Assembly (NCBI GenBank): GCA_015200345.1
Contig: CP054187.1
Coordinates: 248,001 to 312,000, forward strand
Reading direction: 5' to 3'
DNA: 64,000 bases
From: Planctomycetia bacterium
Lineage (GTDB): Bacteria; Planctomycetota; Phycisphaerae; UBA1845; UTPLA1
Shown: in pieces, positions 17,290 through 47,019 of the stretch
Layout: each line of letters begins with the position of its first letter
Position numbering within the stretch: the first letter of the stretch is position 1
Translations under genes and position numbers: made by a program
Notes under the pieces: generated by a model
Told to the model about the DNA's origin: nothing
Seen by the model: the letters and a program-made list of their open reading frames with translations, nothing else
Database searches by the model: none

Positions 17290-17297
17290 GTCTTTGA

Positions 17298-17324
17298 GCC
17301 ACCGCGAAATGCGGTGGCTTTTTT
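17298..17324 (+). terminator. Rho-independent terminator after tRNA-Asn
   Basis: A perfect 8-bp stem GCCACCGC/GCGGTGGC with the 5-nt loop GAAAT is followed by six T residues. It lies nine bases after the tRNA. Confidence 0.9.
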
Positions 17325-17693: not shown

Positions 17694-17918
17694 ATGCGAC
17701 CCGCGCCCGACGACCCGTCCACTCTCTCCCCACATCAGCGCCTGCGCGAGCTGACGGCCATCCTGGCTCGCAGAATTCATCGCTTACGCGCCCGGCCGCC
17801 AGTCCCTGCGGAAATCTGCAAGATTCCGGCGGAATTGTCGCAAACCGGCCTTGATCCGGGCGCGAGGACTTGCCCTCATGGGGTCGTGGCGTCGCCACGC
17901 GAGAACGGAGATCGATGA
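17694..17918 (+). CDS. Small hypothetical protein upstream of DUF2924 gene
   Basis: A 74-residue basic protein starting at ATG 17694, with GGAGG about eight bases upstream. The segment HQRLRELTAILARRIHRLRAR suggests one amphipathic helix; the rest is Pro/Arg rich. Its stop is immediately followed by the DUF2924 start, so the two genes and the recombinase form one operon. I associate comparable short proteins with this class of recombinase operon, but no function is known. Confidence 0.55.
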   Translation: MRPAPDDPSTLSPHQRLRELTAILARRIHRLRARPPVPAEICKIPAELSQTGLDPGARTCPHGVVASPRENGDR

Positions 17919-20023: not shown

Positions 20024-20511
20024 CGGTCGAGTTCAAGGTGCATTTCGGGCGCGGCCCGGCCGGACGACGCGAGGCACGGCTCGGCGACGCGCCGGACGCG
20101 ACCGCCGTGCCCGCGGGCAGCGTGCCCCGCGTGGCCCGATTGATGGCCTTGGCGATCCGTTGCGAAGAACTGGTCCGTCGTGGCGGCATCACAGACTACG
20201 CCGAGCTGGCCGAACTTGGCCACGTTACGCGGGCACGGATGACGCAAATCATGAACCTGCTCAACCTCGCGCCCATCATCCAGGAGGAGATTCTGTTCCT
20301 GCCCCGCACGACCAGCGGCCGCGACCCGGTCGGCGAACGCGACCTTCGGCCGATTACGTCCGTCGTCGACTGGCGTGAACAAAGACGGTTGTGGAAAGCT
20401 CTCTCTGCCAATACCACGTCACGCGGGCTTCGGGGGGTGCCCGACCCCAAAGGCCGCCGCCCGTCCCAGACGCACGCCGTGCTTCTCGCTCGCGTGCCTG
20501 CGGCCGTATAA
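20008..20511 (+). CDS. Small HTH protein of the recombinase operon
   Basis: A 167-residue protein overlapping the recombinase end by 16 bases. The central part (GGITDYAELAELGHVTRARMTQIMNLLNLAP, about 60-90) is a helix-turn-helix of the type seen in phage and transposon regulators, preceded by ARLMALAIRCEELV. The last 50 residues are low in conservation signals. It probably regulates the element or assists the recombinase. Confidence 0.7.
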   Translation: MPDSVTVEFKVHFGRGPAGRREARLGDAPDATAVPAGSVPRVARLMALAIRCEELVRRGGITDYAELAELGHVTRARMTQIMNLLNLAPIIQEEILFLPRTTSGRDPVGERDLRPITSVVDWREQRRLWKALSANTTSRGLRGVPDPKGRRPSQTHAVLLARVPAAV

Positions 20512-20703
20512 TGCATGGCTGCTGCCTAAAACTCTATCCAGCCTGATCTTGCAGCATAACGGTGCGTGCCAAGCACGACCTTTGTTGAGGATGCCCAGGC
20601 GATGGGCCACACGCGACTCGGAGATCTTCCACGGACACGAAAATGGCAGGAGGTCATTGGCCTCGTCGCCGCTGGTGCCGGCGCGGAGTAAATCGCCAAC
20701 GCT

Positions 20704-21384
20704 GTGATTCGGGCCGCTGAGACCGGCCTCATGGCGGCGGCCCACCATACGGGCCTCGTCGAAGCACTTTGGTCCCTCACGCAGATCACGCAGGCCGCGC
20801 GGGAGAAGGATTTCGCCGCTGGACTCCGCGCCCGCGGATTCGAGGTCCCTGACAACCCCAGCCTGCCCGCGATCCTCAGCGCCGTTTCCGCTGCGGTGGA
20901 CCGGAGCATGCCGAATAACAGGGGCCGCACGGACCTGGGCGAAATGGCGCACAGCGCCGCCGTTGAGACCACAAACCGCATCGTGACCGAACGAGTGTCT
21001 TCATTGTTCGGCGCGACCGCTCAGGACGTCCAGCGAGCGTTCCACGACCTCGGCACCGAAAAGAACTTCGGCGAGTTGGGGAAGCGATTCTTCGGACAGG
21101 TGATGAACAAGGTGCTCCAGTTCTACGTGAGCCGGGAAAGCGCGAATCACGTTGGCCACGGCCAACGCTTCGCCAACCTCGCGGCGAAGGCCGCATTCGA
21201 CGATGCAATGAATACGCATTGCCGCCAAGCGTCCGTGATCGTCGAAAAGTTCGCCGGCGAGTGGCAGTCGAAGCAGAAGTGGGAGAAGCGAGACACCGGC
21301 GGCATCACGCGCGACGATGTGGGCAGGTTCGCCCACGTCGCGATGAAAAAGATGATCGCTGAGCTGAAGGAGGGGAATAAATGA
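20704..21384 (+). CDS. Partner protein of the QueC-like gene; N-terminus cut off by an in-frame TAA
   Basis: The intact part encodes 226 residues, mostly helical, of no family I recognise. The same frame is open upstream from GTG 20566 to a TAA at 20689-20691. Read through, the segment KWQEVIGLVAAGAGAE-stop-IANAVIRAAETGL looks like continuous protein with a glutamine (CAA) changed to TAA. The original gene was therefore probably 20566-21384 (about 272 residues). Its stop overlaps the start of the QueC-like gene (ATGA), so the pair is translationally coupled and likely works together. Confidence 0.6.
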   Translation: MIRAAETGLMAAAHHTGLVEALWSLTQITQAAREKDFAAGLRARGFEVPDNPSLPAILSAVSAAVDRSMPNNRGRTDLGEMAHSAAVETTNRIVTERVSSLFGATAQDVQRAFHDLGTEKNFGELGKRFFGQVMNKVLQFYVSRESANHVGHGQRFANLAAKAAFDDAMNTHCRQASVIVEKFAGEWQSKQKWEKRDTGGITRDDVGRFAHVAMKKMIAELKEGNK

Positions 21385-23408
21385 ACCCTCCTGAAATGCT
21401 GTTCCTATGCAACGAGGCCGCCGCGGGCCATACCGGTTCCTCAGCCGGGGTAACGAAGCTCCGCACCGCGGGATCAGGCAAGAACGTGCGGCTGGAACTC
21501 GACGAGGTCGGCCGGCAGCTCAACCGCAACATAGCACCGGCGCTGATCGATCTGGTTGAAATCGCATCGCTTGTCTACATCGCCGACCAAGTCCAGCATC
21601 GCGGTGCGGATGAGGTCGAGAACATGGGCGCGACTTGGCGTCGCCGAATGCGGTTTGAGATTCCGGTGCGGGTGCCGTCGCTCTGGCGGACAGCGGAAAT
21701 CAGTGATTCGCTGGTCGAGCTGCTGAGCTTCCTGTCGGAGGACGAGTACGACTTCACCTTCACGCAATACAAACACCCTCCGGCGCTGGACGCATACCTC
21801 AGCTTTGGGAAACTTGCGGCGGAGACGCCTCCGGAAACAGTGGTGCTCTTCTCCGGGGGGCTCGATTCACTTGGAGGGGTGCTCGAGGAAGTGGTGCGAG
21901 ACAAGCGCTCGGCGCTTCTGATTACGCATGAACCGACGACCAAGCTGCGCGGGCGGCATCGCACGCTGCGTAGCATGGTTGCCAACGCTACCGACGGGCC
22001 AGTGCCGCAGTTCATCACCGTCCGCGTCAACAAGAAAGACCAGAAGGAACGCGAGTACACGCAGCGAGCCAGGTCCTTTCTGTATGCGTCGTTGGCTGTC
22101 GCCGCCGCCCGCATGGCGGATCTGAACGCAATCCGATTCTTCGAGAATGGCGTCGTAAGTCTCAACCTTCCCGTGTCGCCGCAGGTTGTGGGGTCGCGCG
22201 CCACCCGAACCACGCACCCCCGAGTGCTGGCCTGCATGCGGCGGCTGTTCTCCTCGATCACGGGCGGTGAATTCACAGTCAATAACGGATTCCTTTGGAA
22301 AACCAAGTCGGACATCGTGGCTGACATTGTGAAGGGCGGCCAGGGATCGATGATCGAGTGGTCCACAAGCTGCACACACACGTGGACATATCGGAAGGAC
22401 AAGCCGCACTGCGGCATCTGCTCGCAGTGCATCGACCGCCGGTTCGCGGTGCTAGCCAACAACGCCGGCCAGTTCGAGCCTGCCGAAAAATACCGCCATC
22501 ACCTGTTGACGGAGGCACGCGACGAGGGCGAGTCACGCATAATGCTGGCCTCATACCTGGAGACGGCGCAGCAAGTGGCAGACATGGACATCACGGCCTT
22601 CTGCAACCGCTTCGGCGAAGCCGCCCGTGCGTTTCCATATCTGGGTATGCCCCCGGATGACGCGGCGAACAGTATCTTCGATCTATACAAGCGCCACGCG
22701 CGACAGGTGATGTCTGTGATCGAAGCCGAGGGCAAGGCACACATGTCCGAGATACGCAAGCGCTCGCTGCCGCCGACCTGCGCCTTGCGGTTGGTTCACG
22801 ACCCGAATCCCAACACGACGAACATTGTCGCGCCCTCCGTCAGTGGATCGGTCGCGCCCGCACCTCCATCGCATCAGCTTGCCCAAGAGGGCCAAGCGTG
22901 GCTGCTTCGGTTTGAAGGCATCGACAAACGCTTCGAACTCAGCGTTGGAATGGTCTACCTCCACGCGATGCTGTCCATGCCCAACAAATCCTTCACGGTC
23001 GCAGAGCTCTATTCGATTGCTCGACCGCACATGAAGAATATCCCCTCCGCTCGATCGGAAGCCGCATTCGATGAGAAGGCCGCTCGCGCGTACTGGCAGC
23101 GACTCACCGAGTTAGACGCCGAGATCGCCGCCGCCGAAAAGGGTCAGGACACGACGGCGATGCGAGTCGCCGAGAACGAGAAGGCTCGTCTTTTGACAGA
23201 ACTGAAGGCCGCAAGGTTTGCAGGCCGACCCAAAATCGAGAGCGCTGACCACAAACGTCTGCGCGACCGCGTTCGAAACGCTGTCGACCGTACGATCAAG
23301 ATTATCAAGAAGTACCACTCCAGCGCCGGTGCTCATCTCGACGAGGCCATATCACGCGGTTCCGTAATGACGTACGCGCCAGCGGAAATCCCGCCGTGGA
23401 TATTTTGA
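21381..23408 (+). CDS. QueC-like PP-loop ATPase with extra C-terminal domain (candidate defence protein)
   Basis: A 675-residue protein. The N-terminal ~140 residues are unassigned. A QueC-like adenine-nucleotide alpha hydrolase domain follows, with the PP-loop FSGGLDSLGG (about 155-164) and a zinc cluster made by CTHTW ... CGICSQCIDRR (about 330-355). QueC makes 7-cyano-7-deazaguanine; relatives fused or paired with other domains occur in anti-phage systems such as Qat (QatC) and type IV CBASS. The last ~180 residues include a winged-helix-like part (FTVAELYSIARP) and a charged coiled coil. No other queuosine or Qat gene (QatA, QatB, QatD) is nearby, so this is probably a different system. 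Confidence 0.7.
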   Translation: MNPPEMLFLCNEAAAGHTGSSAGVTKLRTAGSGKNVRLELDEVGRQLNRNIAPALIDLVEIASLVYIADQVQHRGADEVENMGATWRRRMRFEIPVRVPSLWRTAEISDSLVELLSFLSEDEYDFTFTQYKHPPALDAYLSFGKLAAETPPETVVLFSGGLDSLGGVLEEVVRDKRSALLITHEPTTKLRGRHRTLRSMVANATDGPVPQFITVRVNKKDQKEREYTQRARSFLYASLAVAAARMADLNAIRFFENGVVSLNLPVSPQVVGSRATRTTHPRVLACMRRLFSSITGGEFTVNNGFLWKTKSDIVADIVKGGQGSMIEWSTSCTHTWTYRKDKPHCGICSQCIDRRFAVLANNAGQFEPAEKYRHHLLTEARDEGESRIMLASYLETAQQVADMDITAFCNRFGEAARAFPYLGMPPDDAANSIFDLYKRHARQVMSVIEAEGKAHMSEIRKRSLPPTCALRLVHDPNPNTTNIVAPSVSGSVAPAPPSHQLAQEGQAWLLRFEGIDKRFELSVGMVYLHAMLSMPNKSFTVAELYSIARPHMKNIPSARSEAAFDEKAARAYWQRLTELDAEIAAAEKGQDTTAMRVAENEKARLLTELKAARFAGRPKIESADHKRLRDRVRNAVDRTIKIIKKYHSSAGAHLDEAISRGSVMTYAPAEIPPWIF

Positions 23409-28482: not shown

Positions 28483-30923
28483 TCGATGCCCCTCGTGTCG
28501 CGCCGACGATCCGCCGGTTCCTCGAGCTGCTGTTCCAGCCGGGGGACGTATTCGAGGTCCGCGTGCCGGATTGCCGTGAGCGCCGCGATGCCCGGTACGC
28601 ATTCACCTGCTCGGGCTACTTCACCTTCGAGACGATGGATGCGGCGGTCGCCGGGATCGTGGAACTGGATCGTTCGGCCATTGCCCCCGGCATCTATGTG
28701 ACGATCAATCCCGTTGCGCCGGCGCTTCTGGCCCGCGCCGCCAACCGAATCAAGCCCCGGGCGCGCGAAACGACGCAGGACAAGGACATCCTACGTCGCT
28801 GCTGGTTGCTGATCGACGTCGACCCTGGCCGGCCGGCGGGCGTCAGCGCCACCGAAGCCGAACTGGCGCTGGCGCACACGAGGGCCCGCGCGATCACCGA
28901 GTATCTGGCATCGGCAACATGGCCGGTCCCGATTCTGGCCATGTCAGGGAATGGCTACCACTTGCTGTACCACATCGACCTGCCGGCGGACGACGGCGGG
29001 TTGGTCAAGGGCGTCCTCGCGGCGCTGGCCGATCGATTCAGCGACGACGTCGTCGTGGTGGACCGCGCGGTCCACAACCCGGCGCGGATCGTCAAGGTAA
29101 TCGGGACGGTCTCCCGCAAGGGCGATGAGCTTCGCGGTGCGGCCGGTCAAGACGACCGTCCACATCGACGGTCCGAGTTCGTCGAAGTGCCCGAGCAGCT
29201 CGTCGCCGTACCCGAGGAACTCCTACGGGCCGTGGCGAACGCCAAGGACGGCTCGGACGACGCGGCACGGGCCAACGTCGCGGCCCCCGTGGCCAACGTG
29301 GGCGGCGACAACGGCCGGTTCGACTGCACCCCGGCTGGCGTCCGGGCCTGGCTCGAGGCCCGACGCGTGACCGTGAAGGGCGAGCGCCGCAACGGCGACA
29401 AAACGCTGCTCCTTTTGGAGCGCTGCCCGATCAACCCGGAAATCGTCTCCAACGGCGGCTCCGACATCGCCGTGATGGTCGGCGACGACGGCATGCTCGC
29501 TTACTGCAACAAGCACAATCGCGGTCAGGCGTACACATGGCACGACCTGCGACGGGCGCTTGATCCGGAATACGAAGCCCGCGCAGCCGATGACGGCAGC
29601 GTCGATCTGTCCGCGTTCGGCGTCTCCGCGCACGACGCGCCGCCAGCCAGCGCGGGTGACACGCAACCGATCGATCCCGGCCCATTGCCTGAAGAACTCC
29701 TGCGCATCCCCGGTTTCGTGAGCGAGGTGATGGACTTCTGCCTGGAGACCGCGCCCTACCCGAATCTGGCACTGGCGTTCGGCGGCGCGCTGGCGTTGCA
29801 GGCGTTCCTGGCCGGCCGCAAGGTGCGCGATCCCGGCGACAACAGGACCAACATATATGTCCTGGCCCTGGCGCATTCCTCCGCCGGCAAGGATGCACCT
29901 CGCAAGCTCAATACGCAGATCATCAATGCAGTGGGGTTCGCCCGCTGCCTTGGCGAACGCCTGGCCTCGGGCGAGGGCGTGCAGGATGCGCTCTTCGCCG
30001 ATCCGGCCATGCTGGTCCAGACGGACGAGATCGACAGCATGCTCCAGTCGATCAACAAGTCCCGCGATGCCAGGCACGAGAGCATGATGAGCACGCTGCT
30101 GACGCTGTACTCATCGTCGAACAGCGTGTATCCGATGCGCCGCAAGGCGGGGAAGGAATACCCCGGCGTCATCGACCAACCGTGCCTAGTCATCTTCGGC
30201 ACGGCGATTCCCAACCACTACTACGAGGCCCTTTCGGAGCGGATGCTCACGAACGGATTCTTCGCCCGCATGCTGATCCTCGAGGCAAGCCAGCAGAGAC
30301 GGGGCCAGGAATCATCAATCCGCGAACTGCCGCCACGCATCACGGCGACGGCGAAGTGGTGGGCGGAATACCGTCCCGGCGCTGGCAATCTTGCGGGTTG
30401 TCATCCCGCGCCCGCCATCGTCGAGCAGACGGAGGATGCGCGACGGGTGCTGGCGGAGACGCGCGAGGAGGCGGACGCGGAGTACAACAAGGCCCAATCC
30501 GCGCAGGACGCCGTCGGAACAACGGTCTGGGGTCGGGTCAGCGAGCAGGCGCGAAAACTCTCCCTGATCTACGCGGTCAGCGAAAACCACGTCGAGCCGC
30601 GCATCGGCGTCGAGGCGGCCCGCTGGGCGTCGCGTCTCGTCACGCACCAGGTCCGGCGGATGCTCTTCATGGCCGCCGGCCACGTGGCCGAGAACCCGTT
30701 CCATGCCGATTGCCTGCGATTGCTGAAGAAACTGCGCGAAGCGCCAGACCACGCCCTGCCCCACCACGTGCTGCTCAAACGCATGAAGACCGACGCCAAG
30801 AGCTTCCGCGAGCTGATCGAGACGCTCGTGCAGCGCGGCGACGTCGTGATCGACGCCGTGGCGACCGAGGGCCGGACCAGGACCGTGTATCGCTTGGTGG
30901 GGAACGAAGGTGAACAAGCGTGA
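28479..30923 (+). CDS. AEP-type primase fused to a DUF3987-like domain
   Basis: An 814-residue replication protein. The N-terminal archaeo-eukaryotic primase domain has LLIDVDPGRP (DxD metal motif, about 107-116), SGNGYHLLYH (second motif, about 148-157) and NPARIVKVIGT. A linker follows, then a domain from about 400 onward (LALAFGGALALQAFLAGRKV ... SSAGKDAPRKLN) like DUF3987, which is often joined to primases in phages and plasmids. It overlaps the helicase by four bases and completes the replication module. Confidence 0.8.
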   Translation: MIDAPRVAPTIRRFLELLFQPGDVFEVRVPDCRERRDARYAFTCSGYFTFETMDAAVAGIVELDRSAIAPGIYVTINPVAPALLARAANRIKPRARETTQDKDILRRCWLLIDVDPGRPAGVSATEAELALAHTRARAITEYLASATWPVPILAMSGNGYHLLYHIDLPADDGGLVKGVLAALADRFSDDVVVVDRAVHNPARIVKVIGTVSRKGDELRGAAGQDDRPHRRSEFVEVPEQLVAVPEELLRAVANAKDGSDDAARANVAAPVANVGGDNGRFDCTPAGVRAWLEARRVTVKGERRNGDKTLLLLERCPINPEIVSNGGSDIAVMVGDDGMLAYCNKHNRGQAYTWHDLRRALDPEYEARAADDGSVDLSAFGVSAHDAPPASAGDTQPIDPGPLPEELLRIPGFVSEVMDFCLETAPYPNLALAFGGALALQAFLAGRKVRDPGDNRTNIYVLALAHSSAGKDAPRKLNTQIINAVGFARCLGERLASGEGVQDALFADPAMLVQTDEIDSMLQSINKSRDARHESMMSTLLTLYSSSNSVYPMRRKAGKEYPGVIDQPCLVIFGTAIPNHYYEALSERMLTNGFFARMLILEASQQRRGQESSIRELPPRITATAKWWAEYRPGAGNLAGCHPAPAIVEQTEDARRVLAETREEADAEYNKAQSAQDAVGTTVWGRVSEQARKLSLIYAVSENHVEPRIGVEAARWASRLVTHQVRRMLFMAAGHVAENPFHADCLRLLKKLREAPDHALPHHVLLKRMKTDAKSFRELIETLVQRGDVVIDAVATEGRTRTVYRLVGNEGEQA

Positions 30924-30976
30924 ACGAAGCGGTGAACGAAGTCGTGGGGAACAAAGGGAAAGATGGGTGAACGAAG
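30902..30976 (+). repeat. Iteron-like direct repeats at the end of the primase gene
   Basis: Six copies or near-copies of TGAACGAAG lie within 75 bp (starts near 30901, 30911, 30921, 30933, 30948 and 30968) and run past the primase stop at 30923. Short regularly spaced direct repeats next to a replication gene can be an origin. Confidence 0.4.
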
Positions 30977-31489
30977 ATGTGTAGGCCGCGCCGCGAGTTA
31001 CGTGCTTCTTTCCCTCTTTCACCCGCACGGCGTGCGGGCATGAATACATATTACTTCTCTTCTTCTTTCTCTCTTTCACCCGCTACCCGCACGCGCACCT
31101 GCACCCGCGCACGCGCGTACGCGAGGGGAAGGGGTGAAGGAGGGAAGGAAGTTGGGTCCTACCTGGCCCAAGTCGCCAGCCGAGGCCCGCGGGAACAGCC
31201 ACGAATCCAGACAGAGTTTGTTGCGCTTGGCCGATCCCCAGCCAGGCCGCCACGGGGCGCGCCCCGTTGGGCCGTGGGCCAACGGACGCCGCCGGTGCGT
31301 CCTGGCCTACGCCTTGGCCGCCCCGTTGGCCCCGGGGCGGCCCACGTTGGCGCCCGGGCGACGCGGCGCGGACGAGCCGGGCGTTTCTACGGCCTCGGCG
31401 GCCCTGTTGCGACGTGGGCCAACGGGGCGCGTCTTGGGCGAACCGGCGGCTGGGACGCCGTCGGATAGGGCGATGACAAGGAGGTCAAC
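30977..31489. other. GC-rich non-coding stretch with inverted repeats
   Basis: I see no believable gene. There is a hairpin CCCGCAC-GGC-GTGCGGG near 31022-31038. Two copies of a CTCTTTCACCCGC phrase are present (about 31013 and 31071). From about 31255 to 31430 several CCGTTGG/CCAACGG inverted words occur. A GGAGG-type site just before 31490 serves the next gene. Confidence 0.45.
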
Positions 31490-32860
31490 GTGAACATCGA
31501 ACTGCGGCCGCTGGCCGCGATCAAGCCGTATGAGAAAAACCCGCGGATCAACGACGCGGCGGTAGACGCCGTCGCCGAGTCGATCCGGCGGTTCGGGTTC
31601 CGCCAGCCGATCGTGGTGGACGCCGATGGCGTCATCGTCTGCGGGCATACGCGCTATCGCGCGGCGCAGAAGCTGGGCCTGGCCGAGGTGCCGGTCCACG
31701 TGGCCACGGACCTGACGCCGGAGCAGATCCGGGCGTACCGCATCGCCGACAACAAGACCGCCGAGCTGGCGGAATGGAACCTGGAGCTCCTGCCGATCGA
31801 GCTGGCCGAGCTGAAGGACGCCGGCATCGACTGGTCGCTGCTGGGGTTCGACGCCGACGAGCTGGCCGTCATGCTCGACCCCGGCGTGAAGCCGGGGCTG
31901 ACCGACCCGGACGACGTGCCCGAGCCGCCGGACGAAGCCATCACCCAGCCGGGCGACCTGTGGATTCTGCGCAACGCGGACGGCATCGAGCACCGACTGG
32001 TCTGCGGCGACAGCGCATCCGCGGCGGACGTGGACCTGCTTCTGGCCGTCGATCCCGTGAAAGCTCTTGAGTTGCCAGCCGGCTCAGACGTCAAACCGAA
32101 GCTGTTGCCGATCCACCTGATCAACACCGACCCGCCTTACAACGTCCGCGTCGAGCCGCGCAGCAACAACGCCATCGCGGCGGGCCTCTCGTCGTTCGGT
32201 ACGCCCGATGCACTCACGCACCACCAGGGGTTCGACCTGGCGCGCCGCCCGGAGATCGCCAAGCCAACGCACGCCAAGCTGCGGCCCAAAGACCGGCCGC
32301 TGGCCAACGACTTCGTGAGCGACGCCGAGTTCGACCGGCTGCTGCACGCGTGGTTCGGCAACATCGCCCGCGTGCTCGCGCTCGGTCGCGGCTTTTACAT
32401 CTGGGGCGGGTACGCCAACTGCGGCAACTACCCACCGGTGCTGAAGGCCTGCGAACTGTATTTCTCGCAGGCGATCATCTGGGTCAAAGAGCATCCGGTC
32501 CTGACCCGCAAGGACTTCATGGGCAACCACGAGTGGTGCTTCTACGGCTGGAAAGAGGGCGCCGCCCACCGGTACTTCGGCCCCAACAACGCGGTGGGCG
32601 TCTGGCCGACAAACCGACCCGCGTATAAACCGGGTCAAAGCCACGAGTTGCGATACTTGCCTGCCTGTGCGTCGCATGCGGACAGGCCCCAGCCCCCGCG
32701 CCGGTCCTCCCCCAAAAAAAAATCTCTACAACGCCCGAAAAACCTTGATAATTGGGGGGGGGGGGGCGGGGGTACAATGGCGGGTAGGAGCGCGCCAGGT
32801 TCATGGCCTGGCGCGAGGGCAGGAGGAGCTCTCAGCTCGCAAAACGCATCACATTATTGA
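31490..32860 (+). CDS. ParB-nuclease / DNA methyltransferase fusion, C-terminally truncated
   Basis: The reading frame is 456 residues. Residues 1-95 are a ParB/sulfiredoxin-type domain (KPYEKNPRIND, VVDADGVIVCGHTRYRAA, ADNKTAE). From about 165 a beta-class DNA amino-methyltransferase begins with motif IV TDPPYN (about residue 213). Phage-like sequence stops at about NNAVGVW (near 32607); the last ~80 residues are Pro/Gly/Ser-rich read-through of non-coding DNA. Beta-class enzymes carry the S-adenosylmethionine motif I (FxGxG) C-terminal to motif IV, and it is missing here. The methyltransferase is therefore probably inactive, cut by the DNA that brought the DGR. Confidence 0.75.
   Translation: MNIELRPLAAIKPYEKNPRINDAAVDAVAESIRRFGFRQPIVVDADGVIVCGHTRYRAAQKLGLAEVPVHVATDLTPEQIRAYRIADNKTAELAEWNLELLPIELAELKDAGIDWSLLGFDADELAVMLDPGVKPGLTDPDDVPEPPDEAITQPGDLWILRNADGIEHRLVCGDSASAADVDLLLAVDPVKALELPAGSDVKPKLLPIHLINTDPPYNVRVEPRSNNAIAAGLSSFGTPDALTHHQGFDLARRPEIAKPTHAKLRPKDRPLANDFVSDAEFDRLLHAWFGNIARVLALGRGFYIWGGYANCGNYPPVLKACELYFSQAIIWVKEHPVLTRKDFMGNHEWCFYGWKEGAAHRYFGPNNAVGVWPTNRPAYKPGQSHELRYLPACASHADRPQPPRRSSPKKKSLQRPKNLDNWGGGGGGTMAGRSAPGSWPGARAGGALSSQNASHY
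32745..32778 (+). promoter_or_regulatory. Promoter-like element with a G13 tract in the spacer, before the DGR target gene
   Basis: TTGATA (32745-32750) and TACAAT (32773-32778) are good -35 and -10 matches but are 22 bp apart. The spacer holds 13 consecutive G (32754-32766), a C and five more G. An A9 run lies upstream (32714-32722). Slippage of the G tract would change the spacing, the classic layout of a phase-variable promoter; a spacing of 17 would need five fewer G. Confidence 0.5.
32791..32815 (+). promoter_or_regulatory. Strong hairpin in the 5' UTR of the DGR target gene
   Basis: CGCGCCAGG (32791-32799) pairs perfectly with CCTGGCGCG (32807-32815) across a 7-nt loop. It lies between the putative -10 and the start codon at 32871 and has no T run, so it may be an mRNA-stability or control element rather than a terminator. 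Confidence 0.5.
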
Positions 32861-32870
32861 GGAGTGAATT

Positions 32871-33875
32871 ATGAAAGGCATCATGAGACTTCTGGCGGCG
32901 GTGGTGGTCTGCGCGGGCGCGGCCGGCGCGCGGGCGAGCATCGTCATCGACACCGTCCCCGTCGGCAACGCCGGCAACGCGGGGGACACGCGGTACGACG
33001 TTGGCGGTTATGGCGCGGTCGGCTACGCGTTCAACATGGGCAAATTCGAGGTGACGGCCGGTCAGTACACCGCGTTCCTCAACGCCGTGGCCGCGACGGA
33101 TACCTACGGGCTGTACAACACGGACATGGGAAGCTTTCCCAACCTTGGCGCCAACATTCAGCGCAGCGGCTCGTCGGGCAGCTACACCTACAGCGTGGCG
33201 GCGGACTGGGCCAACCGGCCGGTGAACTACGTCTCCTGGGGCGACGCGGCGCGGTTCGCTAACTGGCTGCACAACGGCCAACCGACGGGGGCGCAGGGGC
33301 TGAGCACCACCGAGGACGGCTCGTACTTCCTCAACGGGGCGACGAGCAATGCGGCGCTCATGGCCGTCACGCGAAAGCCCAACGCTACCTGGGTGATTCC
33401 CAGCGAGGACGAGTGGTACAAGGCGGCGTACCACAAGAACGACGGCGTGACCGGCAACTACTGGGACTACCCGACCGGCACGAACGCGGTCCCCAACAAC
33501 GGGAACCCCGGAGGCGATACCGGCAACTCGGCGAACTTCTACGATGGCGATTCCACGATCGGAGGCCCCTACTGGCGGACGAACGCGGGGTTCTTAGGGC
33601 TTTCCGACAGTCCGTACGGCACGTTCGACCAGGGCGGGAACGTGTGGGAGTGGAACGAGGCGAACCTCTTCGGTTCGTCTCGCGGGTTTCGGGGCGGATC
33701 GTTCAACGCCAACGACCTCTACCTGCACGCGTCGTACCGCAACGGCAACAACCCGACGGTCGAGTACTACAGCATCGGGTTCCGTGTCTCCGAGGTTCCT
33801 GAGCCAGGCAGCCTGGCGATGCTGGCCTTCGCAGGAGTAGGGATGCTGGTCAGGCGAAGGGGGCTGGGACGATAG
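32871..33875 (+). CDS. DGR target: secreted FGE/C-type-lectin-fold protein with variable repeat and PEP-CTERM tail
   Basis: A 334-residue protein. Residues 1-23 are a signal peptide. The formylglycine-generating-enzyme/sulfatase-modifying-factor fold runs from about 30 to 307 (KFEVTAGQYTAFLN, NRPVNYVSWGDAARFANWL, VIPSEDEWYKAAYH, QGGNVWEWNE, RGGSFNANDL, IGFRVS). This is the C-type-lectin-like scaffold used by many DGR targets. Codons 267-307 (33670-33793) align to the template repeat downstream, with changes at template adenines. The C-terminus VPEPGSLAMLAFAGVGMLVRRR is a PEP-CTERM exosortase signal: PEP motif, one membrane helix, arginine cluster. The likely product is a surface-displayed, hypervariable binding protein. 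RBS GAGGAG ahead of ATG. Confidence 0.93.
   Translation: MKGIMRLLAAVVVCAGAAGARASIVIDTVPVGNAGNAGDTRYDVGGYGAVGYAFNMGKFEVTAGQYTAFLNAVAATDTYGLYNTDMGSFPNLGANIQRSGSSGSYTYSVAADWANRPVNYVSWGDAARFANWLHNGQPTGAQGLSTTEDGSYFLNGATSNAALMAVTRKPNATWVIPSEDEWYKAAYHKNDGVTGNYWDYPTGTNAVPNNGNPGGDTGNSANFYDGDSTIGGPYWRTNAGFLGLSDSPYGTFDQGGNVWEWNEANLFGSSRGFRGGSFNANDLYLHASYRNGNNPTVEYYSIGFRVSEVPEPGSLAMLAFAGVGMLVRRRGLGR
33670..33793 (+). repeat. DGR variable repeat (VR)
   Basis: The 124-bp segment aligns without gaps to the template repeat at 35431-35554 (offset 1761). There are 15 differences. Fourteen are at template A (33679, 33708, 33709, 33717, 33718, 33720, 33735, 33744, 33745, 33759, 33760, 33765, 33768, 33772) and one is a G-to-T at 33689. 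The last 20 bp (33774-33793) are identical and would be the initiation-of-mutagenic-homing region. Confidence 0.95.
33803..33817 (+). promoter_or_regulatory. Hairpin downstream of VR (candidate retrohoming cruciform)
   Basis: GCCAGG (33803-33808) and CCTGGC (33812-33817) form a 6-bp stem with a CAG loop, nine bases after the VR end. DGR homing in the Bordetella phage system depends on a hairpin or cruciform just after the homing site. Here it overlaps codons for the PEP motif (PGSLA). Confidence 0.6.
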
Positions 33876-33906
33876 CCCTTTGTCCTTTGTCTCTTTTACC
33901 CTTTAT

Positions 33907-33954
33907 CCGGGGCGGGCGCCGGCCCGCCCCGGTCCTTCGCCGCCGAAGGCGGCG
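33907..33954. terminator. Two strong hairpins between target gene and avd
   Basis: The first is CCGGGGCGGGC/GCCCGCCCCGG (33907-33932, 11-bp stem, loop GCCG). The second is CGCCGCC/GGCGGCG (33938-33954, loop GAA). No T run follows directly, so they may attenuate rather than end transcription, separating a high level of target mRNA from avd-rt. Confidence 0.45.
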
Positions 33955-33973
33955 CGCGAATTTATTTTGAGCC

Positions 33974-34381
33974 ATGCGCACGCGCCGCATCAGCGAGGAT
34001 TCCCGCAACGAGCCTCCCGTTCTGCTGGTCAAGTGGTACGACGTGACGAAGTGGCTGCTGGAGCGCGTGGACAACTTCCCGAAGAACCAGCGGTTCATTT
34101 TCGGCCAGCGGATTGCCGACCGAACGTTGAACGTCCTGGAAGTGCTGGTGGAAGCGGCTTACTCCGCCCGCAAGGTGGACCTTCTGGCGCGGGCCAACCG
34201 TCACATCGAGGTGTTGCGCTGGCTGATCCGCATGGCCACCGACCGCAAGCTGCTCACGCCGCGGCAGTACGAGTATTGCTGCATGGGCCTCAACGAGTGC
34301 GGCCGGATGGTCGGGGGCTGGTGGAAACAGGCGGCGGCGAAGGAGCGAAACGCCTATGCACCGCGTGAAGAACCTCTTTGA
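33974..34381 (+). CDS. avd: DGR accessory protein, Avd-like four-helix bundle
   Basis: A 135-residue helical, basic protein. YDVTKWLLERVDNFPKNQRFIFGQRIADRTLNVLEVLVEAAYSARK and HIEVLRWLIRMATDRKLLTPRQYEYCCMGLNECGRMVGGWWK follow the heptad pattern of the Avd/bAvd family. Avd forms a pentameric barrel that binds the DGR reverse transcriptase and template RNA and is required for mutagenic homing. It overlaps the RT gene by 26 bases. Confidence 0.85.
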   Translation: MRTRRISEDSRNEPPVLLVKWYDVTKWLLERVDNFPKNQRFIFGQRIADRTLNVLEVLVEAAYSARKVDLLARANRHIEVLRWLIRMATDRKLLTPRQYEYCCMGLNECGRMVGGWWKQAAAKERNAYAPREEPL

Positions 34382-35417
34382 GCAGGTCTGCTCGATGCGG
34401 AACCTCCACCTTGCGGCCAGGGAGGCCCTGCGGGGCAAGCGGACGCGCCTGCCCGGGGCGCGCTTCTTCGGCGAACAGGAAAAGGAACTGGCGGCCCTGC
34501 ACGAGGAATTGTCTTCCGGGACCTATCGGCACGGCGCTGATCGCTACTTCTGGATTCACGATCCCAAGGAACGGCTGGTGGCGGCGGCGCCGTTCCGCGA
34601 CCGGGTGGTCCATCACGCCATCGTGCGGGTCATCGAGCCGATTTTCGAGAAGCGATTCATCGAGGACTCCTACGCCTGCCGCACCGGCAAGGGCACGCAC
34701 GCGGCCATGCGGCGGGCGCTACACTTCGCTCGCGGGCATCGCTACGCGCTGAAGTGCGACGTGTTGAAGTTCTTCCCGAGCGTCGACCAGCAGGTGCTGT
34801 TGGGCTTGGTCGGTCGCGTGATCGCCGACCGGGAGGTTCTCGAGCTGCTGGGGCGCGTGTTGGCCAGCCACGCCGACGCAGAGTTCCCCGAGTGGCGGCC
34901 GAGAGGCGGGCTGTTCGATTACGAAATCCGCCGGACGGGCCTGCCGATCGGCAACCTGACCAGCCAGTTCCTGGCGAATGTGTACCTGAATCCGCTGGAC
35001 CACTTCGTCAAGCACGAGCTGCGCGTAAAGGGGTATGTCCGGTACATGGACGATTTTCTGCTGTTCGGCGACGCCCGCGCCGCGTTGAAGGGCTGCGGCG
35101 CGAGGATCAAAGACAAGTTGTCCGAGATGTGCCTGCGGATGCACCCGGACAAGTATCGTCTACTGCCGACGGACAAGGGCGTGGACTTTGCGGGGTTCGT
35201 GGTGTTCGCGGACGGGCGGGTGCGGGTCCGATCCTCGTCGGTGCGGCGCTTTGATCGGCGCTATCGCCGGATGCTGTGGGAGGTAAATCGCAAACGGCGC
35301 GTCCCTGCCGACCTGACCATGCGCGTGCGGGCTTGGGGCGCTCACGTCGCCCACGCGCAGAGCTACGGGCTGCGCGCGGACGTGCTGGGCCGCCGGAGGA
35401 AGGCTCTCTGTGGGTGA
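34356..35417 (+). CDS. DGR reverse transcriptase
   Basis: A 353-residue RNA-directed DNA polymerase. Motif 1-2 region DPKERLVAAAPFRDRVVHHAI, motif 3 LKCDVLKFFPSVD, motif 4 GLPIGNLTSQFLANVYLNPLD, catalytic YMDD in YVRYMDDFLLFG, and a thumb region up to the C-terminus. The IGNLTSQ form of motif 4 (in place of the QG of retroviral and group II RTs) is the diagnostic of DGR enzymes, which copy template RNA with errors at adenines. There is no maturase or endonuclease domain. Intact, with the template repeat 13 bp behind it. Confidence 0.95.
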   Translation: MHRVKNLFEQVCSMRNLHLAAREALRGKRTRLPGARFFGEQEKELAALHEELSSGTYRHGADRYFWIHDPKERLVAAAPFRDRVVHHAIVRVIEPIFEKRFIEDSYACRTGKGTHAAMRRALHFARGHRYALKCDVLKFFPSVDQQVLLGLVGRVIADREVLELLGRVLASHADAEFPEWRPRGGLFDYEIRRTGLPIGNLTSQFLANVYLNPLDHFVKHELRVKGYVRYMDDFLLFGDARAALKGCGARIKDKLSEMCLRMHPDKYRLLPTDKGVDFAGFVVFADGRVRVRSSSVRRFDRRYRRMLWEVNRKRRVPADLTMRVRAWGAHVAHAQSYGLRADVLGRRRKALCG

Positions 35418-35430
35418 CCGGGAAGCGACA

Positions 35431-35554
35431 TCGGTTCGTATCGCGGGTTGCGGGGCGGATCGTTCAACAACAACGACAACAACCTGCACGCGTCGAACCG
35501 CAACAACAACAACCCGACGAACGAGAACAACAACATCGGGTTCCGTGTCTCCGA
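35431..35554 (+). repeat. DGR template repeat (TR)
   Basis: Non-coding 124-bp donor copy of the VR. It is adenine rich at the right codon positions: read in the VR frame it has 14 AAC codons, nine of which differ in the VR (GCC, CTC, TAC x4, GGC, GTC, AGC). Of 36 A in the TR, 14 are changed in the VR; of 88 other bases, one is changed. AAC is the codon that gives the widest amino-acid range by adenine mutagenesis without producing stops. Confidence 0.95.
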
Positions 35555-35806
35555 AGCCCCTGAAACTCAGGCGGCGCAAGCCTGCGGCCTGATCCGGGCG
35601 GGAGGACAAAGCTCGCCCGGCCGAGCCGTGCTCAGGGACCACCCGGTCGTCCGGCGTGCCCGCTGCAACCGTGCAAAGCCTTGGCCAAGCATGGGCGAAG
35701 CGGGCAGGCGAAGAAGAAGGCCCGGCCGTGGTGAGTAGCAACAGCGAAAGGCGCGGCCGGGCCGCTATTTTCGTCAGCATAATCTCCAGCCTCTCTTGGC
35801 CAGTGC

Positions 35807-37054
35807 GTGACGCGCGAACGCATTCTCGCCGGCGCGATCCTCGGCCTGGCCGGGCCCGGGCGCAAGATCGCCGGGTTGATGACGCTGACGGTCGTGCGCC
35901 CCGACGACCTTGCCGACCGCATCCTCGACCGCGATAAGCATCCGCAGTGGCAGGGCGAGCGGACCAAGATGGTCTACGCCTGGCCGACGAACGAGGCGCT
36001 GTGGGCGCGCTACGCCGAGCTGTGGCGCGAGGGAATGCGGGCCGATCGGGGCATCGCCGACGCGACCGAGTTCTACCGCGCCAACCGTGAGGCGATGGAC
36101 GAGGGAGCTGTCGTCGCCTGGCCGCAACGGCACCATCCCGACGAGCTGTCGGCCATCCAGCACGCGGTGAATCTGAAACTGGATCGCGGCGAGGCGGCGT
36201 TCTGGGCGGAGTATCAGAACGAGCCGCTGCCCGAGGAGCAGGTCGACGATGATCTGCTGACCGCCGACCAGATCGCCGCGAAGGTCAATGGCCTGAAGCG
36301 TGGCGAGGTGCCGCTCGGCGCGACGGCGCTGACCATGTTCATCGACGTGCAGGGGAAGGCGCTGTTCTGGCTCGTGGCCGCGTGGGAGGACGACTTCACC
36401 GGCTACGTCATCGACTACGGCACGGAGCCGGAGCAGAAGGAGGCGTACTTCACCCTGCGCGACATCCGTCGCACGTTGACCAGCACCGCATCCCGCGCCG
36501 GGCTGGAAGGCGCGATCTACGCCGGGCTGGAACGCCTCTGCGACCGGACGCTCGGCCGCGAGTGGCGGCGCGACGCTGAGGGCGACCAGGGAGGAAGCCC
36601 GAAGGCGGTGGTGCGGATCGACCGCTGTTTGATTGACGCAAACTGGGGCAGCTCGTCGGACGTCGTGTATCAGTTCTGCCGGCAATCGCAGTACGCCAGC
36701 GTCGTCATGCCGTCACACGGGCGCTACGTCGGGGCGTCGTCGATCCCGTTCTCTGAATACCGTCGCAAACGCGGCGACCGCGTAGGCCTGAACTGGCGCA
36801 TCCCGGTCATCACCGGCAAGCGTGCCACGCGACATGTCGTGTTCGACACGAACTACTGGAAGTCCTTCGTCCATGCCCGGCTCGCCGTCCCGATGGGCGA
36901 CCCCGGCTGCCTGTCGTTGTACGGCCGCAAGCCCGAGGCGCATCGCCTGATCGCCGAGCACCTGACCGCCGAGTACCGCGTGAAGACCGAAGGGCGCGGG
37001 CGCACCGTCGACGAGTGGAAGCTGCGCGTCGCGCAAAGTCGGCGGAGCCCTTGA
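35807..37054 (+). CDS. Phage terminase large subunit, truncated at both ends
   Basis: A 415-residue frame holding the middle and nuclease part of a GpA-like large terminase (KMVYAWPTNEALWARYAELW, AAFWAEYQNEPLPEE, FIDVQGKALFWLVAAWEDDFTGYVIDYGT, GRTVDEWKLR). The N-terminal ATPase with Walker A, about 250-300 residues, is absent; phage-like sequence begins at about 35805, just after the DGR block. The C-terminus breaks off after VDEWKLR, where about 40 more residues are usual, and the restriction module follows. A packaging motor cannot be made from this. Confidence 0.8.
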   Translation: MTRERILAGAILGLAGPGRKIAGLMTLTVVRPDDLADRILDRDKHPQWQGERTKMVYAWPTNEALWARYAELWREGMRADRGIADATEFYRANREAMDEGAVVAWPQRHHPDELSAIQHAVNLKLDRGEAAFWAEYQNEPLPEEQVDDDLLTADQIAAKVNGLKRGEVPLGATALTMFIDVQGKALFWLVAAWEDDFTGYVIDYGTEPEQKEAYFTLRDIRRTLTSTASRAGLEGAIYAGLERLCDRTLGREWRRDAEGDQGGSPKAVVRIDRCLIDANWGSSSDVVYQFCRQSQYASVVMPSHGRYVGASSIPFSEYRRKRGDRVGLNWRIPVITGKRATRHVVFDTNYWKSFVHARLAVPMGDPGCLSLYGRKPEAHRLIAEHLTAEYRVKTEGRGRTVDEWKLRVAQSRRSP

Positions 37055-37130
37055 AGGCTTCCCGGTTCACAACCGATCGGGTATCCTGGTCCACGACTCG
37101 AACTGCACGAATTGCGGGAGAAGCGAAGGC

Positions 37131-38717
37131 ATGGCGGTTTGCGACCCGATACCCGTGATCGACCTGTTCGCGGGACCGGGCGGGCTGGGCGAGGGCTTCA
37201 GCGCTGCCCGCTTCCGCGGCCAGCACATCTTTCGCATCGCCCTCTCGATTGAAAAAGACCCGCACGCCCACGCCACGCTCATGCTGCGGGGCTTCTTCCG
37301 CCAGTTTACGGGCCGTCGCGTTCCAGAGGCCTATTACGAACATCTGCGCGGCGAGCTGGCTCGTGATGACCTGTACGCCCGTTACCCGGCCGAGGCACAG
37401 CGTGCCGCCCAGGAGGCGTGGCACGCGGAACTCGGCGGTGCATCGGCGCCGCCGGACCTCGTGCGCCGACGGATCCGCCAATCGCTGGCCGGAGCGAAAG
37501 CGTGGGTGCTCATCGGCGGTCCGCCGTGCCAGGCCTACTCGATCGCCGGCCGGTCGCGGAACCGCGGAATACGTGGATACGCGCTCGAGCGGGACGGTCG
37601 TCATCGCCTGTACGAAGAATACCTCCGCATCGTCGCGGACCTGTGGCCACCGGTCTTTGTGATGGAGAATGTCAAGGGCCTGCTGTCAACAACGATCCGG
37701 GGTGAGCTGCTGTTTGAACGCATGTGCGATGATCTTAGTGATCCGGCCCGTACCCGGCCGCGCCAGAAGCGGCGACGGTATCGCATTCTTTCACTCGGGG
37801 AGAAGGTGGAACGGAGCCCGTTCGATGGCGACTCCGTCCAGAGCTTTGTGGTCCGTGCTGAACGCCACGGGATTCCACAAGCCCGACATCGCGTAATCCT
37901 GCTTGGAATTCGGGAGGACCTGGGGGACATAACACCGCCAGTACTGCGAAGTCAAGAAGCAGTCCCCGCCGATGCCGTCCTGCAAGGACTTCCCCGGTTG
38001 CGTAGCGGTCTGTCGAGAGCATCGGGACGTATGTCGAAGTACGCAGGCGGCCAGGACGTCTGGCTCAACGCTATAAAACGTGAGATTAACAGCAGGTGGG
38101 TTGACGGAAACCACGGAATCGACAATAGGGAAACTGTCCGTGAACTCATCCGCTCAACCATCAAAGAACTGTGTGTTCCACCGGCGGATCGAGGTGCGGA
38201 GTTCGTCCGCGGACAGGTCACCGTCAACTACGAGCCGGAATGGTTTCTGGATGACAGGATCGGTGGAGCATGTAACCACGCTTCGCGGGCACATATGGAC
38301 CGTGATCTGCACCGCTACCTGTTCGCAGCGTGCTACGCGGCGGTCAATCACCGGTCGCCGCGGATGAAGGACTTCCCGCCCGATCTGCAGCCGAATCACC
38401 GCAACGTGGCTGCGGCGATCAACGGCGGTTACTTTGACGACCGTTTCCGTGTGCAGCTCAGGAACGAGCCAGCAACGACAATTACCAGCCACATCCATAA
38501 GGACGGCCATTACTACATTCACCCGGATCCGTCACAGTGCAGAAGCCTCACCGTCCGCGAAGCGGCGCGGATTCAGACATTTCCCGATAACTATTACTTC
38601 ACAGGGTTGCGCTCGCAGCAGTACATTCAGGTCGGAAACGCGGTGCCTCCTCTGCTGGCGCGCCAGATCGCGGAGGTCGTGTACGGCGTGCTGCGCGGGG
38701 CCGGGATGACAGGCTGA
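37131..38717 (+). CDS. C5-cytosine DNA methyltransferase
   Basis: A 528-residue enzyme. Motif I DLFAGPGGLGEGF (11-23), catalytic cysteine C133 in GGPPCQAYS (motif IV), ENV of motif VI, QARHR of motif VIII, QVGNAVPP of motif X. The target-recognition region is long. It starts an operon with vsr one base behind, typical for a type II-like modification enzyme whose deamination damage is repaired by Vsr. Intact. Confidence 0.93.
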   Translation: MAVCDPIPVIDLFAGPGGLGEGFSAARFRGQHIFRIALSIEKDPHAHATLMLRGFFRQFTGRRVPEAYYEHLRGELARDDLYARYPAEAQRAAQEAWHAELGGASAPPDLVRRRIRQSLAGAKAWVLIGGPPCQAYSIAGRSRNRGIRGYALERDGRHRLYEEYLRIVADLWPPVFVMENVKGLLSTTIRGELLFERMCDDLSDPARTRPRQKRRRYRILSLGEKVERSPFDGDSVQSFVVRAERHGIPQARHRVILLGIREDLGDITPPVLRSQEAVPADAVLQGLPRLRSGLSRASGRMSKYAGGQDVWLNAIKREINSRWVDGNHGIDNRETVRELIRSTIKELCVPPADRGAEFVRGQVTVNYEPEWFLDDRIGGACNHASRAHMDRDLHRYLFAACYAAVNHRSPRMKDFPPDLQPNHRNVAAAINGGYFDDRFRVQLRNEPATTITSHIHKDGHYYIHPDPSQCRSLTVREAARIQTFPDNYYFTGLRSQQYIQVGNAVPPLLARQIAEVVYGVLRGAGMTG

Positions 38718-38718
38718 G

Positions 38719-39240
38719 ATGGACCGAATAACAGAGGAACGGCGGCGCTGGAACATGTCGCGGATTCGCGGCCGCGACACCGGGCCGGAGAAGGTCGTGC
38801 GGTCGCTGCTGCATCGCATGGGCTGCCGCTTCCGCCTTTACAGACGTGATCTGCCGGGTTGCCCGGATATAGTGCTCCCGAAGCACCGCAGCGTGGTCTT
38901 CGTGCATGGTTGCTTCTGGCATCGTCATGCTCGGTGCAGATTCTCTTACACGCCCAAAAGTCGCGTCGGCTTCTGGTCGGCGAAATTCGCCGAGAACGTC
39001 AGGCGCGATACCCGCGTACGGCGTGCCTTGCGAAATCTGGGTTGGCGCGTTATCATCGTATGGGAATGCCAGACGGCCAATCCGCAAGTGCTGGTGACCA
39101 AACTGGCACGGGCTTTCGAGCAAAAGGAGCGATCACGTGCGGGAACGCATCCGGTCGTTGGTGAAAAACGCCGATCGTGCTGCTGCCGCGCGATGGCTGC
39201 GGCAGACCGTCAGAACCATCGGTCCGGGGTTTCATTTTGA
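38719..39240 (+). CDS. vsr: Very short patch repair endonuclease
   Basis: A 173-residue Vsr nuclease. MSRIRGRDTGPE at the N-terminus, catalytic Asp in PGCPDIVLPK (D50), zinc and active-site residues in VFVHGCFWHRHARC, then KFAENVRRD and LGWRVIIVWEC. It nicks at T:G mismatches arising from 5-methylcytosine deamination; in some systems Vsr-fold proteins are the restriction nuclease. The C-terminal 30 residues overlap the next gene and may be extra. Confidence 0.92.
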   Translation: MDRITEERRRWNMSRIRGRDTGPEKVVRSLLHRMGCRFRLYRRDLPGCPDIVLPKHRSVVFVHGCFWHRHARCRFSYTPKSRVGFWSAKFAENVRRDTRVRRALRNLGWRVIIVWECQTANPQVLVTKLARAFEQKERSRAGTHPVVGEKRRSCCCRAMAAADRQNHRSGVSF

Positions 39241-47015: not shown

Positions 47016-47019
47016 GTGA

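What the first reader, a model, noticed from the sequence alone, without database searches (positions are those of the whole stretch)
32745..35554. Complete diversity-generating retroelement in the accessory island
The target gene, Avd-like gene, DGR-type RT (IGNLTSQ motif, YMDD) and adenine-rich template repeat are all present in that order. VR and TR align over 124 bp without gaps. Fourteen of 15 differences are at template adenines (14 of 36 A changed; 1 of 88 other bases). Nine of the 14 AAC codons of the TR are altered in the VR, none to a stop. The 20 bp at the VR 3' end are identical to the TR, as expected for the homing site. All parts are intact although the surrounding prophage is decayed, which suggests recent activity or selection.
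Basis: partly seen in the sequence, partly recalled or inferred. Interest (0 to 1): 0.93.

Follow-up and report, generated by a model that had tools for sequence, protein, structure and literature searches.

The report
Surface-lectin-rewriting retroelement in a prophage
A complete gene-rewriting cassette (a diversity-generating retroelement) sits in a planctomycete prophage remnant, and its template and target gene differ almost only at template adenines; the target is predicted to be a lectin-like protein anchored on the cell surface, and a long run of G in its likely promoter would let cells switch it on and off as well as rewrite it.

Summary
Confirmed: target gene, avd, RT and template repeat (TR) are intact and in order. 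Over 124 bp, 14 of 36 template adenines and 1 of 88 other bases differ from the variable repeat (VR). New here: (1) the target has a formylglycine-enzyme/C-type-lectin fold with a PEP-CTERM sorting tag right after the VR; the genome has an exosortase and 35 such tags. The tag puts the conserved homing-type hairpin about 150 bp from the VR. (2) Behind the TR lies a covarying three-hairpin RNA without an Rfam match. (3) A 13-G run, the genome's longest, lies in the likely target promoter; runs of 9 or more recur before 6 of 36 relatives, and in 77 viral loci all 7 lie just before such a gene. (4) The cassette recurs in viral contigs beside head genes; between two near-identical viral contigs of a relative, 21 of 24 differences fall in the VR while the TR is identical. 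Verdict: a real DGR, a new variant, predicted to diversify an exosortase-anchored, possibly phase-variable surface lectin carried by phages. Homing, anchoring and switching are inferred.

The parts
32745..32778 (+). Putative phase-variable promoter: TTGATA (32745-32750), 13-G run (32754-32766), TACAAT (32773-32778); present spacer 22 nt
   Evidence: Sequence. Longest G/C run of the genome; similar runs before relatives. Promoter activity not tested.
32871..33875 (+). Target (variable protein, VP): hydrophobic N-terminus, FGE-sulfatase/C-type-lectin fold, VR, PEP-CTERM tag
   Evidence: PF03781 7.8e-21 and PF07589 over cut-off; Foldseek best hit 2y3c Treponema denticola variable protein 1.
33670..33793 (+). 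Variable repeat (VR)
   Evidence: 14 of 36 A vs 1 of 88 non-A differ from TR.
33774..33793 (+). 3' end of VR identical to TR (homing-site-like 20 bp)
33795..33872 (+). PEP-CTERM sorting tag (VPEPG...RRRGLGR) right after the VR
   Evidence: PF07589, TIGR02595; exosortase elsewhere in the genome.
33907..33932 (.). 11-bp GC hairpin with GCCG loop, seen only in this cassette of the ten aligned
33938..33954 (.). Conserved 7-bp hairpin with GNA loop (likely homing hairpin), about 150 bp after the GFRV of the VR
33974..34381 (+). avd
   Evidence: NF033474 4.2e-31 over cut-off; phrog_3206 'Avd protein of DGR'
34356..35417 (+). Reverse transcriptase (IGNLTSQ, YMDD)
   Evidence: phrog_1423 6.6e-109; nearest solved 8ub7
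35431..35563 (+). Template repeat (TR)
   Evidence: 129 of 133 bases identical in G050; other cassettes
35586..35771 (+). Structured RNA downstream of TR: three main hairpins, the last followed by a T-rich stretch
   Evidence: 39 pairs, 17 with changes on both sides, 0 of 500 shuffles reach it; model R1 147.8 bits here (the window is in its training set)

Best explanation
This is a complete diversity-generating retroelement whose reverse transcriptase (with Avd) likely copies an adenine-rich template RNA, with errors at adenines, into the 3' part of a gene for a predicted exosortase-anchored surface protein of C-type-lectin fold. Shown by sequence: parts, order, adenine-limited divergence, the PEP-CTERM tag right after the VR, the covarying RNA after the TR, the 13-G run before the gene, and relatives of the cassette next to phage head genes. 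Inferred: the transcript from TR through the three-hairpin RNA is the template and priming RNA; cDNA homes to the VR using the shared 3' end and the GNA hairpin that lies beyond the tag; the protein is exported, exosortase removes the tag and leaves the variable face on the outside of the cell; slippage of the G run changes the promoter spacer and so switches or tunes expression; phages carry the cassette as a passenger (lysogenic-conversion) module, and here it survives in a decayed prophage. What the variable face binds is unknown; other cells, particles or incoming phages are the likely ligands.
For: VR/TR statistics. Avd and RT families. VP fold and tag; exosortase 1.2e-54 and 35 PEP-CTERM tags in the genome. 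Similar cassettes at unrelated sites with nearly the same limits: among host genes in G050 and G021, before phage head genes in L037 and L049, behind a terminase in L035. Covariation: 93.7% of cells paired, 17 pairs changed on both sides, 0 of 500 shuffles. Viral contigs L261-L263: 21 of 24 (4,496 bp, L261/L262) and 21 of 28 (5,638 bp, L261/L263) mismatches lie in the VR, TR identical; R1 RNA right after their TR (4.5e-12). G runs of 9 or more: 6 of 36 VP upstream windows and none in 165,243 bp of the rest of those loci; in 77 viral loci (792,970 bp) all 7 such runs lie just before a VP. RT under purifying selection against G050 and L049.
Against: No expression, homing or localisation data. 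The hairpin is farther from the VR (122-150 bp) than the 4-34 bp reported for phage DGRs, and longer spacers lowered homing in the Bordetella phage (PMC3240598 passages); L035 and G021 lack it in the same perfect form. In the window the promoter spacer is 22 nt, not near 17. Homopolymer length is unreliable in assemblies, and the G050 run abuts a gap of N. Most VP relatives have no G run: 30 of 36 and 20 of 27 viral ones. Only one VR/TR state is held for this genome, so current activity here is unproven. L262 and L263 share one VR although a longer alignment of the two is only 95.8% identical. Signal peptide judged by eye. The PEP-CTERM tag of L261 scores below the Pfam cut-off, and those of L024 and L025 are seen by eye only.
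Confidence: 0.8

Rival explanations
1. The cassette is an inactive relic: a DGR stranded in a dead prophage, with the VR fixed at its last state.
For: Phage neighbours are truncated. Decayed cassettes exist elsewhere: part of TR and the RNA kept without RT in L174, L188, L192; RT with an internal deletion in L036. Only one VR state is known here.
Against: VP, avd and RT are open, and RT is under purifying selection against G050; VR and TR differ at only 1 of 88 non-adenine positions, which a long-dead pair would not keep.
Confidence: 0.15
2. The target is a phage structural protein (head decoration or receptor-binding) like other phage DGR targets, not a host surface protein.
For: In viral contigs it sits among head genes: portal relatives before and S49-type head protease relatives after it in L198, L203, L204, L208, L213, L217, L226 (7 of 77 loci; identities 22-34%); L049 and L037 have a portal gene next.
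Against: PEP-CTERM tag and hydrophobic N-terminus fit export and exosortase, not virion assembly; a host paralogue without DGR lies elsewhere in the genome, and 52 of 114 genomes of the order have family members; no match at 1e-5 in 50,697 phage records.
Confidence: 0.1
3. The G run is a neutral compositional accident or an assembly artefact, and the promoter is not phase variable.
For: Spacer of 22 nt is off the usual 17; G17 in G050 touches an N gap, as two-colour sequencers can produce (recalled); L205 has a similar upstream sequence without the run; most relatives have no run.
Against: Five runs of 10 or more in the whole 3.88 Mb genome, this the longest; in 77 viral loci all 7 runs of 9 or more lie before a VP; L261 reads TTGACT-17-CACAAA with the run inside the spacer and own-genome L134 TTGACA-18-TAGAAC.
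Confidence: 0.3

Closest known systems
Treponema denticola variable protein 1 (TvpA, 2y3c) DGR
   Same: VP of formylglycine-enzyme/C-type-lectin fold; best Foldseek hit of our model; cell-surface target (recalled, lipoprotein)
   Different: Anchored by an N-terminal lipid (recalled); here a C-terminal PEP-CTERM tag follows the VR
Legionella LdtA DGR (title seen in a reference list; rest recalled)
   Same: Surface-displayed DGR target on a mobile element
   Different: Lipoprotein; no PEP-CTERM tag or poly-G run that I recall
Bordetella phage BPP-1 mtd-avd-TR-brt
   Same: Avd, RT, adenine mutagenesis, hairpin downstream of VR (PMC3240598 passages); RT nearest solved relative (identity of 8ub7 recalled)
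   Different: Target is a tail protein with VR at its end, hairpin a few bp from VR; TR lies between avd and RT (recalled). Here TR follows RT and the RNA lies behind it
Cellular DGR targets of Roux et al. 2021 (PMC8144416; section 8 read, passages of section 9)
   Same: C-type lectin VR domain, mostly membrane-anchored cellular targets
   Different: There anchors or signals are N-terminal in most clusters, and VRs typically C-terminal, which the authors ascribe to intergenic homing elements; here 28 translated codons separate VR and stop
Neisseria-type poly-G promoter phase variation (recalled)
   Same: G run inside or next to the -35/-10 spacer of a surface-protein gene
   Different: Not tested here; joined to a DGR target

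Membership tests
Diversity-generating retroelement | RT of the DGR group | tested here: met
   phrog_1423 6.6e-109; 8ub7 6.8e-45 against 2.5e-20 for a group II intron RT (that 8ub7 is a DGR RT is recalled); IGNLTSQ motif. No tree built.
Diversity-generating retroelement | TR/VR pair differing at template adenines | tested here: met
   14/36 A vs 1/88 non-A
Diversity-generating retroelement | Accessory protein Avd | tested here: met
   NF033474 107.3 bits, cut-off 80
Diversity-generating retroelement | VR in a C-type-lectin fold | tested here: met
   PF03781, Foldseek 2y3c E 4.8e-6, TM 0.43-0.50; model confidence low in the VR
Diversity-generating retroelement | Homing hairpin close downstream of VR | tested here: inconclusive
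   Conserved GNA hairpin present but at about +150 against 4-34 bp in phage DGRs
Diversity-generating retroelement | Mutagenic retrohoming occurs | not testable with these tools
   Only indirect: VR-limited differences in L261 against L262/L263
PEP-CTERM/exosortase substrates | PEP-CTERM tag at the C-terminus | tested here: met
   PF07589 21.2 bits, cut-off 20.7; TIGR02595 22.4, cut-off 16
PEP-CTERM/exosortase substrates | Exosortase in the same genome | tested here: met
   PF09721 1.2e-54, one match
PEP-CTERM/exosortase substrates | N-terminal signal peptide | not tested
   By eye: MKGIMRLLAAVVVCAGAAGARA; no predictor at hand
Poly-G phase-variable promoters | G run between -35 and -10 | tested here: inconclusive
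   TTGATA-22-TACAAT with G13 inside; spacer longer than 17
Poly-G phase-variable promoters | Run length varies and changes expression | not testable with these tools
   No reads, no reporter

The most novel reading that the evidence does not exclude
A phage-borne two-layer diversification system: a DGR rewrites the binding face of an exosortase-anchored surface lectin, while a poly-G promoter switches the same gene on and off; phages of planctomycetes and verrucomicrobia hand this module to their hosts as a rapidly changing surface coat. The anchor was fitted between VR and homing hairpin, breaking the rule that VRs end their protein.
Probability: 0.45. Interest if true: 0.86.

Novelty: new variant of a known kind. 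Interest (0 to 1): 0.72.

Why it matters
If true, one gene combines on/off switching with targeted protein rewriting. My term searches found no paper with 'diversity-generating retroelement' and 'PEP-CTERM', 'exosortase' or 'slipped-strand'; 26 papers hold it with 'phase variation', of which I saw 20 as a listing only, so a prior report of the combination is not excluded. It would be a DGR target that uses the exosortase route, would show that a translated tag may lie between VR and homing hairpin, and gives a covarying RNA that marks this DGR group even where no RT is found. The near-identical viral contigs make DGR activity testable in existing read sets.

Tried and rejected
Rejected: several VRs of this TR in the genome (itself, one VR, and 26 matches at E 0.038 or worse). 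Rejected: a known RNA family (Rfam at E 0.1 over 30000-38000 gave only a weak microRNA match, 0.055, outside the RNA). Rejected: group II intron. Rejected: this RNA as a part of all DGRs. R1 over 61 sources (the window, loci with other RTs, loci of the VP family, neighbouring stretches; eight of the nine training loci left out) found at 1e-3 or better only the window and L034; L015 has 0.0021. In 114 genomes R1 hits 14 at E 0.01 or better, 9 of them at 1e-9 or better (stricter filters).

Dropped or failed: alignment A4 held a wrong row (an RT piece) and was not used. One search crashed after 2 of 8 comparisons on an N; only those two are quoted. The 0.62 threshold hides weaker placements, so it is no census of VR imprints; without gaps the VR of G050 scores only 58/84 there because of a length change. 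L150's G10 has no -10-like hexamer and counts in the 6 of 36 all the same; G050 and L156 share a promoter and are not independent. The 36 loci are those in hand with the upstream part present and duplicates left out; L011, looked at, was left out and has no run; L027 and L049 are cut before the promoter. One search used a filter for adenine-limited pairs and found none in several loci (for example L026, L028, L035, L036, G021a); the tail that it prints for some viral loci is in a doubtful frame. In one search L035 shows another 6-bp hairpin at +17, inside the tag's coding part, and G021 only an AT-rich one at +138.

Names: G handles bear none; G050:C25 equals JALHJL010000015.1 by length and coordinates (titled Phycisphaerales MAG), which suggests our order.
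Full report
WHAT IS THERE. The window is G000:C1:248001-312000 of a 3.88 Mb single-contig genome. Its order also contains the Phycisphaerales MAG 7-NCT_044 (G050, same contig and coordinates as L023). The region holds, on the + strand, VP 32871-33875, avd 33974-34381, RT 34356-35417 and TR 35431-35563. The genome gives one match to this RT and one VR.

THE TARGET. VP has an FGE-sulfatase domain (7.8e-21) and a PEP-CTERM tag just over its cut-off. The tag begins two residues after the GFRV that ends the VR. The genome has one exosortase match (1.2e-54) and 35 PEP-CTERM matches, all over cut-off, those of VP and its paralogue among them. The AlphaFold model (mean pLDDT 69, pTM 0.76, weak in the VR) finds Treponema variable protein 1 first (2y3c, E 4.8e-6, TM 0.43-0.50) and then mostly formylglycine enzymes. 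A paralogue 58% identical at C1:604387-605364 has no DGR within the locus held. The family is common: 52 of 114 genomes of the order have a member at 1e-50, while 8 of 61 genomes, our own included, have a match to this RT at 1e-30, some only 40-46% identical. So the cassette seems to have taken over a host-type surface protein (inference).

THE CASSETTE AS A UNIT. DNA homology to G050 runs from 32893 to 35764 and to G021 from 32945 to 35764 (about 75-76% identity) and stops there. In G050 the surroundings include an M28 peptidase, PhzF and RNase-H-like genes, with a DUF3150 gene and an AAA-lid fragment nearest to the cassette; in G021 a GH36-type enzyme. In viral contigs L037 and L049 portal, protease and major head genes follow directly. 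In L035 a 752-residue terminase precedes it, with a UPF0236 protein (transposase-like, recalled) between. In the window it lies between a ParB-methylase that has lost its C-terminal part and a terminase that aligns only from residue 298 of that relative, so its arrival or a later rearrangement removed phage DNA (inference). Of 77 viral loci with VP relatives, 23 have a PEP-CTERM-like tail by pattern and 5 have Avd or RT; in 7 a portal relative lies before and an S49-type protease relative after the VP, at 22-34% identity.

TEMPLATE AND VARIATION. The TR shares 129 of 133 bases with that of G050, 104 in one run, while RT genes share 805 of 1,044. Against 120 bases of the window TR (84 non-A, 36 A), the TRs of G050, L037, G021 and L049 keep 83, 80, 79 and 65 non-A and 35, 35, 34 and 32 A, while VRs keep fewer A: this VR 81/84 and 22/36, L035 80/84 and 15/36, L165 79/84 and 16/36, and L148, without RT in the locus held, 77/84 and 18/36. 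Ungapped scores are lower for the VRs of G050 (58/84, one codon longer), G021 (68/84) and L049 (67/84). Distant cassettes against their own TR: L024 16 of 38 A and 0 of 87 non-A, L025 25 of 37 and 2 of 88, L049 17 of 34 and 0 of 89. Best evidence for activity comes from a relative (RT 51% identical): viral contigs L261 and L262 differ at 24 of 4,496 aligned bases, 21 of them in the VR; L261 and L263 at 28 of 5,638, 21 in the VR; the TR is identical in all three. L262 and L263 share one VR although their longer alignment is 95.8% identical. RT of window and G050: dN 0.135, dS 0.98; window and L049: 0.28 and 1.44.

HAIRPIN AFTER THE TARGET. Between VP and avd a 7-bp hairpin CGCCGCC-GNA-GGCGGCG is kept in W, G050, L024, L025 and L165, 122-150 bp after the GFRV; L049 has a 10-bp hairpin with GTTA loop at +127. 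L035 and G021 show no such perfect hairpin there (L035 has a 6-bp one at +17, G021 an AT-rich one at +138). In the two Verrucomicrobiales VPs without tag (L026, L027) a 6-7-bp hairpin with GGA/GAA loop lies at +47/+49 (all). Guo et al. report 7-10-bp stems with GRNA loops 4-34 bp from the VR in phage DGRs, and that longer spacers lower homing (PMC3240598, passages). Roux et al. hold that VRs are typically C-terminal because homing elements need to be intergenic (PMC8144416, section 8). Here a 25-35-codon tail lies between VR and hairpin. That this hairpin serves homing is inferred.

RNA AFTER THE TEMPLATE. Some 185 nt behind the TR (35586-35771) form three main hairpins. On nine sequences 93.7% of cells pair, 17 of 39 pairs show changes on both sides, no shuffle of 500 reaches any of the five measures, and sliding the partners drops pairing to 39-43%. 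The structure was derived from the same alignment, which favours it somewhat. Model R1 finds it right behind the TR of L261-L263 (4.5e-12), in L034 (2.6e-11), and in 14 of 114 genomes of the order at 0.01. In three G042 loci it stands with a partial TR and no RT, and G042 gave no RT at 1e-30: a likely scar of lost cassettes. Its likely role is the 3' part of the template RNA (inference).

THE G RUN. 104 bp before the VP start is a run of 13 G, followed by C, five G and TACAAT, preceded by TTGATA. The genome has five runs of ten or more G/C in all, this the longest; another (L134) reads TTGACA-18-TAGAAC with G11 inside, before a secreted-looking protein. In 36 VP loci, 6 of the 300-bp upstream windows hold a run of nine or more, all G on the coding strand, against none in the remaining 165,243 bp of those loci. 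A -10-like hexamer follows within 0-9 bases in W, L156, L036 and L142, in G050 only beyond an N gap, and none in L150. In 77 viral loci (792,970 bp) all seven runs of nine or more lie 32-99 bp before the start of a VP match, in L196, L198, L210, L226 and L261-L263; the last three are near-identical contigs, and 20 of the 27 viral VPs looked at have no such run. Of the loci with a run, W, G050, L210 and L261-L263 have both Avd and RT. I read this as promoter phase variation; it is untested, and the window's 22-nt spacer may be an off or weak state.

LITERATURE. In the held library no paper has 'diversity-generating retroelement' with 'PEP-CTERM', 'exosortase' or 'slipped-strand'. 'Homopolymeric' gives 3, the two listed being about virus mutation (listing only). 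'Phase variation' gives 26 (20 listed), judged by listing only. Subscription papers are largely missing there.

Noticed in passing
window 37131-39240: C5-cytosine methyltransferase followed by a Vsr mismatch endonuclease, directly after the truncated terminase.
   Followed up: no
window 17218-23408: tRNA-Asn near an integrase of the invertase type (phrog_95, phrog_125) and a QueC-like gene: possible left end of the prophage.
   Followed up: no
window 47016-49013: Tape-measure-like protein (phrog_4200, 3.2e-5): tail genes may remain, although relatives of the L037/L038 portal and capsid proteins were not found in the window at 1e-6.
   Followed up: partly
L134 (G000:C1:3518055-3518065): Own-genome promoter-like TTGACA, 18-nt spacer with G11, TAGAAC before a secreted-looking protein: a second candidate poly-G switch.
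   Followed up: partly
L174, L188, L192 (G042): Cassette remnants keeping TR from base 76-83 to 133 plus the RNA, without RT in the locus: similar breakpoints inside the TR.
   Followed up: partly
L146, L148, L149: VP relatives without RT in the locus held that match the window TR at 69-77 of 84 non-A positions but only 18 of 36 A: orphaned or remotely rewritten targets.
   Followed up: partly
L043 8395-8520: The G050 VR is one codon longer than its TR in the AAC-rich part, as if the template slipped.
   Followed up: partly
L026, L027: Verrucomicrobiales VPs of this clade lack the PEP-CTERM tag and end right after the VR.
   Followed up: partly
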